A stretch of DNA of 64,000 nucleotides, taken from Acidimicrobiales bacterium. GTDB lineage: Bacteria > Actinomycetota > Acidimicrobiia > Acidimicrobiales > MedAcidi-G1. Below the pieces are notes generated by a model. The model was not told where the DNA came from and did no database searches. It saw nothing but the letters and a program-made list of their open reading frames with translations. Numbering within the stretch: the first letter of the stretch is position 1; each line of letters starts with the position of its first letter. Both the position numbers and the translations under genes were made by a program. This document shows positions 1,259 to 27,450 of the stretch, one piece after another. The DNA lies in the NCBI GenBank assembly GCA_029245675.1, contig JAQWOV010000020.1:1-64000 (forward strand), read 5' to 3'.

Positions 1259-2595
1259 CGGAACGCTCAATCGTTGTATTTACTCGTGATCTTCGAGTTA
1301 TTGATAATCCTGCTCTGTGTCTGGCCGCGGAACAAGGCGAAGTTTTTCCACTTTTTGTATTCGACCAAAAAATAGTTACGGCAAGCGACCTTGGCAACAA
1401 ACGCTTAACTTTTCTTCTCGAATCTCTTGAAGACTTACATTCTGGTTTACAAAAAATTGGGTCATCTCTTTTCCTAAGAGTTGGTAATTGGACAGAGGAA
1501 ATCATAAATTTCTGTAAAGAAAAAGAAGCACAAACTATTCATTTAGCTATTGATCACAGCAATCACTCACAAAAACGCTTAGAAGACTTACGAAAGAAAG
1601 CTCAACAGATAGGAATACAGGTAAAAGGACATCAAGGAATCGCAGTAGTTGAACCAGGAATGATTACGCCTGCCTCAGGCGAAGAATACAAAATGTTTTC
1701 CCCGTACTATCAGAAGTGGAAAGAAGCGACATGGAGAGATCTTTTGCCAGCTCCAAAAAATCTTTCTTCTTCTGAAAGAGATCAAAGAAGTTCAGAGATT
1801 TTCCATAATTTCAGACCAGAAGAAAACCATATTCGGATGAAAGGCGGAGAACGAACCGGTCGGGCAAATATGAAGTCTTGGATGGGTGAAGATCTCAAAA
1901 ACTATGCCTTTCTCCGAAATGACCTAGCATCCGATAGGACATCTCGGCTTTCTCCCTACCTGCACTTTGGTTGCTTGTCTCCTCTTGAAGTAGCAGTTTT
2001 ATCTCGTGACCACACTGACGATTCGTTTGTGCGACAGGTTTGTTGGAGAGACTTTTATTTACAAGTATTGAGCAGTCATCCAGAAGCCTCGGTTGCTGAT
2101 TACCGAACACGTGACTTTAAGTGGAGAAGTGATGTCAACCAATATGAAGCCTGGAAAGAAGGAAAGACTGGATACCCGATAGTTGATGCTGCCATGCGTC
2201 AACTACTTCATGAAGGTTTCATGCACAACAGAACACGAATGGTAGTGGCTTCCTTTCTGACCAAAGACCTTCATATGGATTGGCGTTTAGGTGCAAAACA
2301 TTTCATGGAACATTTATTGGACGGCGACGTGGCATCTAATCAACTTAATTGGCAGTGGGTTGCAGGAACTGGAACCGATTACAACCCACACCGCGTATTC
2401 AACCCAACACGCCAAAGTGAAAGATTCGATAAAACTGGAGAGTACATAAAGAGGTGGGTGCCAGAGCTCAGACAGTGTTTCGGTAAAGAAATACACGACC
2501 TAGGGCCGCTTTTAAGAGAAGAACTTGGATATCCGCAACCGATAGTGGATCACGGAGAAGCGATTAAAAAATACAAACAGGATTATGCTTCTTAG
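1255..2595 (+). CDS. phrB: deoxyribodipyrimidine photolyase (cryptochrome/photolyase family)
   Basis: This 446-residue protein repairs UV-induced cyclobutane pyrimidine dimers using light, with FAD as cofactor. The N-terminal alpha/beta antenna domain starts SIVVFTRDLRVIDNPAL. The C-terminal FAD-binding domain contains the family signature around residues 357-380, including LLDGDVASNQ and WQWVAGTGTDYNP, followed by RVFNPTRQS. Length is typical for class I photolyases. A DNA-repair role rather than a photoreceptor role is inferred from its likeness to actinobacterial photolyases. The ATG overlaps the TGA of the dioxygenase gene, a coupling arrangement. It converges on the SDR gene with only 3 bp between stops, fitting a compact genome in a sunlit habitat. 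Confidence 0.9.
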   Translation: MTERSIVVFTRDLRVIDNPALCLAAEQGEVFPLFVFDQKIVTASDLGNKRLTFLLESLEDLHSGLQKIGSSLFLRVGNWTEEIINFCKEKEAQTIHLAIDHSNHSQKRLEDLRKKAQQIGIQVKGHQGIAVVEPGMITPASGEEYKMFSPYYQKWKEATWRDLLPAPKNLSSSERDQRSSEIFHNFRPEENHIRMKGGERTGRANMKSWMGEDLKNYAFLRNDLASDRTSRLSPYLHFGCLSPLEVAVLSRDHTDDSFVRQVCWRDFYLQVLSSHPEASVADYRTRDFKWRSDVNQYEAWKEGKTGYPIVDAAMRQLLHEGFMHNRTRMVVASFLTKDLHMDWRLGAKHFMEHLLDGDVASNQLNWQWVAGTGTDYNPHRVFNPTRQSERFDKTGEYIKRWVPELRQCFGKEIHDLGPLLREELGYPQPIVDHGEAIKKYKQDYAS

Positions 2596-11145: not shown

Positions 11146-11515
11146 GATGGTGAGCCGACAGTAGGCGGGGTTCTGTCCCTCGGTTCCTTACGGAAATCCG
11201 ACTGGGTGACCATCCATCTATGCAGCCCACCTTGGAGTCTCTACGGACGGACCGCCCTCTCCTAATTTGGCCTTGCTCCGGATGGGGTTTACCAAGCCAA
11301 TTAAGTCTCCCTAACTGCTGGTGCGCTCTTACCGCACCTTTTCACCCTTACCTGTTCTACAGCACGCTAGGTGTCATAGTCATCGGCGGTTTATTTTCTG
11401 TGGCACTTTCCTTCGAGTTACCCCGACTGGCAGTTAACCAGCATCCTGTCCTATGGAGCCCCGACCTTCCTCAACACAGCAAACCATGTTGCGGTCACCT
11501 TGTCGACTCACCATC
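11146..11515 (-). ncRNA. rnpB: RNase P RNA (bacterial class A)
   Basis: On the minus strand the RNA begins GATGGTGAGTCGAC and ends GTCGGCTCACCATC; these pair over 14 bp to form helix P1 (11502-11515 with 11146-11159). The conserved P4 5' segment GAGGAAGGTCGGGGCTCC lies at 11455-11472 and its 3' partner ACAGAACCCCGCCTAC at 11161-11176, just before the P1 3' strand. A length of about 370 nt is normal for class A. The RNA is the catalytic subunit that matures tRNA 5' ends. The plus-strand reading frame across this region is a shadow. The exact transcription start and terminator were not resolved. Confidence 0.95.
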
Positions 11516-25737: not shown

Positions 25738-25767
25738 TTGCAAAAGTGGGTAGTTAATGCATAAAAT
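25738..25767 (+). promoter_or_regulatory. probable promoter of the dcw cluster (mraZ)
   Basis: TTGCAA at 25738-25743 and TAAAAT at 25762-25767 are separated by 18 bp, a good housekeeping-sigma promoter. Transcription would start near 25775, leaving a leader of about 75 nt with a small hairpin (CTGGTG 25804-25809 with CACCAG 25820-25825). CCCAC at 25727-25731 and GTGGG at 25746-25750 flank the -35 as a loose inverted repeat, but the tandem TGGG boxes known for MraZ are not evident. Confidence 0.55.
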
Positions 25768-25851
25768 GGAGAGATATGGTGTAAAAGGGAGAGAAAATCT
25801 CTACTGGTGAATTAGTGTCCACCAGGTATAGATCCGGGAAAGGGAACAGTC

Positions 25852-26289
25852 ATGGCATTCGTTGGAACTTATGACCACACCCTTGATGCAAAAGGACGCA
25901 TTGTACTTCCATCCAAATTTCGTGGATATTTTGCAGACGCTGCATACCTTTCACCAGGAGATGGATGCGTTACCTTACGGACGCCCGATGAGTTTGAAGC
26001 AATGGCTGAAAGGTTTAAAGGCGAGGTAAAAGATGAGGTAAGAGACAAAGACACTGACCTAAAAGCGCTACGTGCTCTTGCCGCCATGTCCGAAGAAGTC
26101 CGCCCAGATACTCAAGGAAGGATCATGGTGCCTGTCCGACTTCAGCTATTTGCCGAACTAGATCGAGAGATTGTTGTATGTGGAGCCATTGACCGGATTG
26201 AAATATGGAATGCGGCCTCTTGGAACGAAATGGCAGAAGAGTTAGATCAATCTGTTGCCACCGCTTTCCGTCAAGGCGGCGGAATTTAA
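25852..26289 (+). CDS. mraZ: transcriptional regulator / division protein MraZ
   Basis: A 145-residue protein with two SpoVT-AbrB-like (MraZ) domains: YDHTLDAKGRIVLPSKFR at residues 5-22 and RPDTQGRIMVPVRLQ in the second half. The repeated DxxGRhxhP signature is diagnostic. In E. coli MraZ forms a ring and represses its own dcw operon; actinobacterial homologues have the same position. GGGAAAGGG lies about 8 nt upstream of the ATG. It is the first gene of the division and cell-wall cluster. Confidence 0.95.
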   Translation: MAFVGTYDHTLDAKGRIVLPSKFRGYFADAAYLSPGDGCVTLRTPDEFEAMAERFKGEVKDEVRDKDTDLKALRALAAMSEEVRPDTQGRIMVPVRLQLFAELDREIVVCGAIDRIEIWNAASWNEMAEELDQSVATAFRQGGGI

Positions 26290-26345
26290 GTTAAGAAGGG
26301 GGAGACGACCATTACTGAACTCAAGAAATAAGAAAGCCAGACGTT

Positions 26346-26452
26346 TGGATTGTTGACAGTCTCTCGATTAGCAGATGAGGGGCCCCTACTCCACCCGCTT
26401 TTCATCAATTTGGAAAACCAAATTCCTGATCGGGGGACTGTCAACAACCCAA
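26346..26452 (+). promoter_or_regulatory. extended RNA structure between mraZ and rsmH, candidate mraW RNA motif
   Basis: TGTTGACAGTC (26351-26361) pairs perfectly with GACTGTCAACA (26436-26446). The stem extends outward as TTGG(A)T with A-CC(C)AA. Inside, CGAT (26365-26368) can pair with ATCG (26429-26432), GATGA (26374-26378) with TCATC (26402-26406), and AATTTGG-AAAA-CCAAATT (26407-26424) is a perfect hairpin. The element ends 30 bp before rsmH. A structured mraW RNA motif is known in this leader position in actinobacteria; whether this fits its consensus I could not check. Confidence 0.6.
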
Positions 26453-26481
26453 GCCATTTTTTGAGTAAGAGCGTTTAAGTC

Positions 26482-27450
26482 ATGAATAGCCAAACAGCCC
26501 CTTTCCACTACAAACACATTTCCGTGATGACAGAAGAAATTTGTAATGCGCTCACTGACGTTCCGCCTGGAGTGATTTTAGATGCCACTGTCGGAGGTGG
26601 AGGCCACACGCAAGCCATTCTTGAATTAAGAGAAGACCTGACAGTAATAGGTATTGATAGAGATCAAAATGCCATAGAGGCAACTACTGCGAGACTTGCG
26701 AAACATAAGGAACGTTGTTCTTTTCGGCAATCAGATTTTTTAGATTTCGAAGATGTTCTGAATGACCTTGGAGTGGAAGCCCTTTCAGGATTCATCTTTG
26801 ATCTTGGCGTTTCTTCAACACAACTAGATCTAGCGGAGCGAGGCTTTAGCTATCAGCAGTCTGGCCCGCTGGACATGAGAATGAATGAAAATCAACCTTT
26901 GACTGCAGATCAAGTAGTCAACGAATACCCAGAGTCAGAACTATTTCAAATTCTGAAAAATTATGGAGATGAGAGATTCGCTCGAAGAATAGCTGCATCA
27001 ATAAGGAAGAGCCGACCAATAACAGACACGGTTCATCTCGCTGAAATTGTGAAGTCAGCAATTCCTGCTCGAGCAAGACGCACTGGTGGGCATCCCGCTA
27101 AGAGAACTTTTCAAGCAATCCGGATCGAAGTTAATAATGAATTAGAACAACTTTCTAAGACTCTTGGGGTAGCAATTAGTTGGCTGGTTCCTGATGGACG
27201 CGGAGCAGTTCTTTCATATCACTCTGGTGAAGACCAAATAGTAAAACATACTTTTCGAAATTCGGAGAGCGGAGGATGTACCTGTCCTCAGAAACTTCCG
27301 TGCGTTTGCCTAGCGAAACCCACCGGAAGGATCTTGAATAAAAAACTTATAACCCCTGCGGAAACAGAAATAGTCGCTAACCGCCGCTCATCTAGCGCTC
27401 GCCTTAGATTGATTCAACGTCTTCCAACGAATAGCGATGACAGCCAATGA
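26482..27450 (+). CDS. rsmH: 16S rRNA (cytosine-1402-N4)-methyltransferase
   Basis: A 322-residue SAM-dependent enzyme (MraW) that methylates C1402 of 16S rRNA. The SAM loop DATVGGGGHTQAIL is at residues 34-47, GFIFDLGVSSTQLD matches the family core, and GHPAKRTFQAIRIEVN and SYHSGEDQIVK are conserved C-terminal motifs. It sits at its standard place after mraZ and overlaps the next gene by 4 bp (ATGA). Downstream of a strong potential RNA structure that may tune its expression. Confidence 0.95.
   Translation: MNSQTAPFHYKHISVMTEEICNALTDVPPGVILDATVGGGGHTQAILELREDLTVIGIDRDQNAIEATTARLAKHKERCSFRQSDFLDFEDVLNDLGVEALSGFIFDLGVSSTQLDLAERGFSYQQSGPLDMRMNENQPLTADQVVNEYPESELFQILKNYGDERFARRIAASIRKSRPITDTVHLAEIVKSAIPARARRTGGHPAKRTFQAIRIEVNNELEQLSKTLGVAISWLVPDGRGAVLSYHSGEDQIVKHTFRNSESGGCTCPQKLPCVCLAKPTGRILNKKLITPAETEIVANRRSSSARLRLIQRLPTNSDDSQ

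What the first reader, a model, noticed from the sequence alone, without database searches (positions are those of the whole stretch)
26346..26452. Long-range RNA structure in the mraZ-rsmH gap
An 11-bp perfect stem, extended with bulges, closes a 75-nt region with at least two inner hairpins, one a perfect 7-bp stem with an AAAA loop. It sits in the leader of rsmH and the entire wall cluster. The position is that of the mraW RNA motif described in actinobacteria, whose function is not known; it may be that motif in a distant lineage or a different regulator.
Basis: partly seen in the sequence, partly recalled or inferred. Interest (0 to 1): 0.6.

Follow-up and report, generated by a model that had tools for sequence, protein, structure and literature searches.

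The report
rsmH leader RNA of marine actinobacteria
The gap before the rsmH gene encodes a real, widely conserved folded RNA that in many relatives hides the gene's start signal, and its most conserved loop copies the exact ribosomal RNA site that the RsmH enzyme modifies, so the enzyme may control its own production.

Summary
It folds at -58.5 kcal/mol (z -6.7) as a long stem P1, a hairpin P2 with a 13-nt C-rich loop, and a variable hairpin P3. A covariance model built from relatives finds it about once per genome in 157/248 genomes of the order and 119/198 of the class Acidimicrobiia. Only one weak hit, at a locus without mraZ or rsmH, was found outside the class. Nearly every locus checked lies between mraZ and rsmH. 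Covariation is overwhelming: 35 of 39 pairs have double changes, and no shuffle of 500 reaches it. It is not the mraW RNA (RF01746): no model hit even at E 10, a different loop and a different clade. No Rfam 15 family matches. In the short forms of other orders, the 3' arm of P1 holds the Shine-Dalgarno sequence and the in-frame AUG of rsmH, so it is a translational control element. The P2 loop, ACUCCGCCCG, is nearly invariant and best matches, in all of 16S rRNA, 1396-1405, the site RsmH methylates; the C1402 position is C in 98/98. I propose rsmH autoregulation by rRNA mimicry (about 0.4). The ligand is untested, and RsmH reportedly acts only on assembled 30S.

The parts
26342..26454 (+). 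Whole rsmH leader RNA (match to covariance model R1)
   Evidence: the genome search with R1: G000:C13:26342-26454:+, 97.7 bits, E 1.3e-21; fold
26343..26371 (+). P1 5' arm (6 + 22 paired bases, one bulge at 26349)
   Evidence: fold; covariation of the homologous helix, 25 of 27 pairs with double changes
26374..26383 (+). P2 5' strand GATGAGGGGC
   Evidence: fold; 8 of 10 P2 pairs with double changes
26384..26396 (+). P2 loop CCCUACUCCACCC, the most conserved part of the RNA class-wide; 26388-26397 aligns with 16S 1396-1405 (ACACCGCCCG), and C26394 is the C1402 equivalent
   Evidence: column conservation; C in 98 of 98 sequences; PSSM best site in 16S
26397..26406 (+). P2 3' strand GCTTTTCATC
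   Evidence: fold; covariation
26407..26424 (+). P3 hairpin, 7 bp with AAAA loop; variable in the family and absent from short forms
   Evidence: fold; alignments
26426..26454 (+). P1 3' arm; holds the Shine-Dalgarno and AUG of rsmH in short-form relatives but not in this window
   Evidence: fold; start-codon analysis in relatives
25852..26289 (+). mraZ, upstream gene
   Evidence: NCBIfam TIGR00242, E 2.7e-24, 85.7 bits, below the curated cut-off of 98.35
26482..27450 (+). rsmH (mraW), 16S rRNA C1402 N4-methyltransferase; the gene presumably controlled
   Evidence: NCBIfam TIGR00006, E 3.3e-94

Best explanation
It is a cis-acting leader RNA in the mraZ-rsmH part of the mRNA that sets how much RsmH is translated. 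Shown: a conserved P1/P2(/P3) fold on the sense strand, one copy per genome and found next to rsmH. In the short-form relatives the 3' arm of P1 contains the rsmH Shine-Dalgarno and start codon, so the fold hides them. The P2 loop is the most conserved element and matches 16S 1396-1405, the RsmH target, better than any other place in 16S. Inferred: the loop is bound by RsmH itself when free RsmH exceeds unmethylated 30S, which holds the start site closed (autogenous control by rRNA mimicry, as for ribosomal protein leaders). In the window's own lineage the rsmH AUG lies 27 nt beyond P1, so there the effect would have to act at a distance (blocking ribosome entry, or on mRNA stability or transcription).
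For: Covariation: A1 (22 sequences) 95.9% of cells paired and 23 of 39 pairs with double changes; A3 (66 sequences) 94.7%, 35 of 39 pairs, 538 double-change cells against 152 shuffled, 0/500, and sliding the partner by one column drops pairing to about 50%. Sense-strand RNA: G-U pairs 384 versus A-C 66. Gene specificity: of about 100 loci, all but one weak hit and one contig-end locus are flanked by mraZ and rsmH; no other copies in the window's genome. Start-site sequestration: AUG/GTG in the P1 3' arm in frame with rsmH in most short forms and many others (42 of 98 in all), preceded by GGGGGG or GGAGGG; unpaired probability 0.02 for the SD and 0.11 for the AUG in 20 short forms, versus 0.26 and 0.65 without the P1 5' arm. 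Loop: C1402 equivalent C in 98/98, CCGCCCG in 80/98, invariant in the 19-member short-form alignment; the 10-column PSSM scores 9.1 at 16S 1396-1405 against 1.4 for the next site; loop shuffles reach 9/10 identity in 0.07%. The gene is the C1402 methyltransferase (TIGR00006).
Against: Published work reports that recombinant RsmH acts on assembled 30S, not on protein-free 16S rRNA (PMC5053481), so binding to a bare hairpin is not a given. Position 1398 differs consistently (U in the leader, A in 16S) and the window's own loop has A for G1401. With 13 or 18 loop columns the RsmH site ranks only 4th or 3rd in 16S, so the 10-column choice is partly post hoc; the whole RNA has many chance 10-12-mer matches elsewhere in 16S. 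P1 is so stable that the default state would be off, which is awkward for simple feedback repression. Many long forms, including the window, start rsmH 27-60 nt after P1.
Confidence: 0.4

Rival explanations
1. Translational control leader whose loop binds another factor (a protein, an sRNA or a small molecule) that reports on cell wall or ribosome status; the 16S resemblance is chance.
For: The conserved loop and start-site sequestration stand without the mimicry argument; the element heads the wall cluster (ftsL, ftsI downstream); short forms have a second conserved stretch, GCCAGCGC, not explained by mimicry.
Against: No second copy before other wall or ribosome genes in the genome (about one match per genome); the invariant loop position coincides with the RsmH target base.
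Confidence: 0.35
2. mRNA processing site or structural insulator: the 20-30 bp P1 is cut by an RNase III type enzyme, freeing an rsmH mRNA with a new 5' end close to the AUG; or P1 brings the mraZ stop next to the rsmH AUG for translational coupling.
For: P1 is long and nearly perfect; in short forms the mraZ stop lies 4-39 nt before the RNA in all but one case; mapped mraW transcript 5' ends in corynebacteria lie inside or just after the mraW RNA, another long stem in the same place (PMC3890552; PMC5784534).
Against: Would not need an invariant C-rich P2 loop; no transcript data for Acidimicrobiia.
Confidence: 0.17
3. Divergent homologue of the mraW RNA (RF01746).
For: Same place (mraZ-rsmH gap), long stem, C-rich apical loop starting ACU.
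Against: No RF01746 hit on the window at E<=10; reverse model R1 scores mraW loci no better than the antisense strand or unrelated hairpins; loop similarity p 0.49; mraW loop does not match 16S 1396-1405.
Confidence: 0.15
4. Intrinsic terminator or chance inverted repeat.
For: A T6 run follows P1 in the window (26457-26462).
Against: The T run is absent in most relatives; the terminator scan does not report P1 (though its loop limit of 3-8 nt excludes it); covariation rules out chance.
Confidence: 0.02

Closest known systems
mraW RNA motif, Rfam RF01746 (Weinberg et al. 2010, PMC2864571)
   Same: Located between mraZ and rsmH/mraW in actinobacteria; long stem with C-rich apical loop; function unknown
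   Different: No model match either way; loop CUCCGCCC (13 nt) versus ACUUCCCC (9 nt); a separate P3 or conserved joiner; rsmH SD/AUG inside P1 in short forms; restricted to Acidimicrobiia, where RF01746 was not found
Ribosomal protein leaders that mimic rRNA binding sites (e.g. L20, S15, S4; PMC7247131)
   Same: Single-copy leader next to one gene of ribosome function, hiding its start site, with conserved loop bases resembling the rRNA target of the encoded protein
   Different: The encoded protein is an rRNA methyltransferase, not a ribosomal protein; binding not shown
Autogenous translational control of rRNA methyltransferases KsgA and ErmC (from memory; not found in the paper library)
   Same: An rRNA methyltransferase proposed to bind its own mRNA leader
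   Different: Different enzyme, clade and RNA

Membership tests
mraW RNA motif (RF01746) | Match to the covariance model at or above the gathering score (50 bits) | tested here: not met
   No match at gathering over the window nor at E<=10 on 26250-26520
mraW RNA motif (RF01746) | Apical hairpin with conserved loop ACUUCCCC | tested here: not met
   Loop is ACUCCGCCC; ACUUCCCC is constant in nearly all RF01746 loci read; similarity p 0.49
mraW RNA motif (RF01746) | Lies upstream of mraW/rsmH, after mraZ | tested here: met
   Window and about 100 relatives
mraW RNA motif (RF01746) | Found in Actinomycetales | tested here: not met
   R1 hits confined to Acidimicrobiia apart from one weak hit; RF01746 hits none of the Acidimicrobiia genomes sampled
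rRNA-mimicking autoregulatory leader | Single-copy conserved RNA in the leader of one gene for a ribosome-acting protein | tested here: met
rRNA-mimicking autoregulatory leader | Structure includes or controls the ribosome-binding site | tested here: met
   Met in short forms; not in the window itself, where the AUG is 27 nt beyond P1
rRNA-mimicking autoregulatory leader | Conserved bases resemble the rRNA site of the encoded protein | tested here: inconclusive
   Best 10-column match in 16S is exactly 1396-1405, but the choice of columns is partly post hoc and longer windows rank 3rd-4th
rRNA-mimicking autoregulatory leader | Encoded protein binds the leader and represses it | not testable with these tools
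   Needs binding and reporter assays
Intrinsic terminator | Stem followed by a U tract, conserved in relatives | tested here: not met
   T6 only in the AT-rich window lineage

The most novel reading that the evidence does not exclude
A class-wide regulatory RNA in which an rRNA methyltransferase feeds back on its own translation by recognising a hairpin copy of its rRNA target, the 16S decoding-site strand around C1402, at the head of the cell-wall cluster, tying ribosome maturation to expression of the division genes.
Probability: 0.35. Interest if true: 0.8.

Novelty: new variant of a known kind. Interest (0 to 1): 0.62.

Why it matters
rsmH sits at the start of the division and cell wall cluster in most bacteria for reasons not understood, and the mraW RNA in the same spot has had no function since 2010. 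A second, independent-looking RNA there, hiding the rsmH start site and bearing a copy of the RsmH target, gives a directly testable function and would extend rRNA-mimic autoregulation from ribosomal proteins to a decoding-centre methyltransferase.

Tried and rejected
Rfam scan of the window: only RNase P elsewhere. Permissive scan of the locus: only a spurious human lncRNA on the other strand. Repeated element: single copy in the genome. Terminator: see rivals. Homology to mraW by reverse model search without filters: hits not above antisense or unrelated stems. Similarity of the mraW loop to 16S 1396-1405: not found. 16S likeness of P3 (GGGGAGAMAUCC versus GGGGUGAAGUC) and of the GCCAGCGC joiner (515-530 region): noticed, but chance matches of that size are common in 16S, so not claimed. 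Loop pairing with the P1 G-run as a switch: set aside because the conserved purine at the 1401 position would mismatch and P1 is far more stable. The 2017 survey of 224 RNA motifs is not held, so an earlier description in papers not held cannot be excluded.

Full report
Observation. The 192-nt gap between mraZ (25852-26289) and rsmH (26482-27450) folds into P1 (26343-26371 with 26426-26454), P2 (26374-26406) and P3 (26407-26424) at -58.5 kcal/mol, z -6.7. The genome is close to marine actinobacterium MedAcidi-G2B (93% RsmH identity), i.e. the marine Acidimicrobiia. The RNA is single-copy.

Comparative evidence. The same structure lies in the mraZ-rsmH gap of 21 relatives. RNAalifold gives 39 pairs, 23 with compensatory changes. 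A covariance model (R1) finds the RNA in 157 of 248 genomes of the order, 119 of 198 of the class and, in a 396-genome phylum sample, only in the class apart from one weak hit (E 0.006) at a locus without mraZ or rsmH. Of about 100 hit loci fetched, all but that weak hit and one at a contig end have mraZ before it and rsmH after it on the same strand. On 66 long forms, 94.7% of pair cells are standard pairs, 35 of 39 pairs show changes on both sides, the covariation score is 0.618 against 0.256 in shuffles (0 of 500 as high), and sliding the partner by one column falls to about 50% paired. The MAFFT alignment A1, not fitted to the model, shows the same. G-U pairs outnumber A-C mismatches 384 to 66, so the functional molecule is the sense-strand RNA.

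Two forms. Long forms (about 112-135 nt; the window's lineage and most of the order) have P3, in many with a conserved GGGGAGAMAUCC. Short forms (about 95-106 nt, other orders of the class) lack P3 and have a conserved GCCAGCGC joiner. In nearly all short forms the only workable rsmH start codon is an AUG or GTG 11-12 nt before the end of the P1 3' arm, preceded at 6 nt by GGGGGG or GGAGGG. Both are paired: mean unpaired probability 0.02 for the SD stretch and 0.11 for the start codon, rising to 0.26 and 0.65 when the P1 5' arm is removed. Many long forms keep an AUG at that place, some in frame and some out of frame with the in-frame start 30-60 nt downstream; the window has none there and starts rsmH 27 nt after P1. 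The simplest reading is that P1 arose, or first served, as a start-site lock. Several genomes without the RNA have lost it together with the spacer.

The loop. The most conserved columns in the whole RNA are unpaired: the P2 loop, consensus CCCCUACUCCGCCCGCUU. Position by position it aligns with 16S 1396-1405 ACACCGCCCG: the C1402 equivalent is C in 98 of 98 sequences, C1399, C1400 and C1403 in 97, G1401 in 86 (A in 11, including the window), and 1398 is U in 95 (A in 16S). A 10-column PSSM of the loop scores 9.1 at 16S 1396-1405 of an Acidimicrobiales genome and 1.4 at the next best site. Loop shuffles reach 9 of 10 identity to that site in 0.07% and whole-RNA shuffles in 2.7%. Since rsmH encodes the C1402 N4-methyltransferase, this is the one 16S site that the gene itself points to. 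Cautions: the 10-column window was chosen after seeing the loop; 13- and 18-column windows rank the site 4th and 3rd; chance matches of 10-12 nt between such an RNA and 16S are common.

Mechanism. Shown: a sense-strand structured leader specific to rsmH that hides its start site in short forms. Inferred: RsmH binds the P2 loop as a decoy of its rRNA site and keeps rsmH translation low when unmethylated 30S is scarce. Against: RsmH is reported to need assembled 30S, not protein-free 16S rRNA (PMC5053481); the mitochondrial orthologue METTL15 is seen on the assembling subunit (PMC9200640); P1 is very stable, so something must open it, perhaps translation of mraZ ending 4-39 nt before the RNA in all but one short form, or cleavage. 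The window's lineage keeps the loop with one change but has moved the AUG out of P1, so there the effect would have to act at a distance.

Comparison. It is not RF01746: no hit at E<=10, other loop, other clade, no cross-recognition, loop similarity no better than shuffles. It shares place and general shape, and a common origin is not excluded. It works like a ribosomal protein leader with rRNA mimicry (PMC7247131), but for a methyltransferase; membership there needs binding data. No Rfam 15 family matches, and the held literature shows no description; papers not held could contain one.

Verdict. Observation confirmed; interpretation partly supported (leader RNA yes, mraW motif no). A new regulatory RNA family of Acidimicrobiia, with autoregulation by target mimicry as the leading and testable proposal (0.4).

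Noticed in passing
window 25743-25797: Three A-rich repeats about 20 nt apart upstream of mraZ (AAAAGTGGGTAG, AAAATGGAGAGA, AAAAGGGAGAGA) that look like MraZ binding boxes; the repeat finder at its settings did not report them.
   Followed up: partly
window 26457-26462: T6 run directly after P1, making it terminator-like in this AT-rich lineage only; one close relative (L003) has T7, others do not.
   Followed up: partly
L017, L019-L021, L023, L027, L028, L185, L186, L189, L192: Acidimicrobiia in which the RNA is missing and the mraZ-rsmH spacer has shrunk to about 100 nt or to a few bases.
   Followed up: partly
L169:about 1545-1640 (reverse strand): Tandem duplication of the RF01746 ACUUCCCC hairpin, suggesting that this hairpin is the binding module of the mraW RNA.
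   Followed up: no
short-form loci such as L128, L131, L137 (between P2 and the P1 3' arm): Conserved joiner GCCAGCGC in short forms, of unknown role.
   Followed up: no
window 11147-11510 (-): Bacterial RNase P class A RNA, complete match.
   Followed up: no
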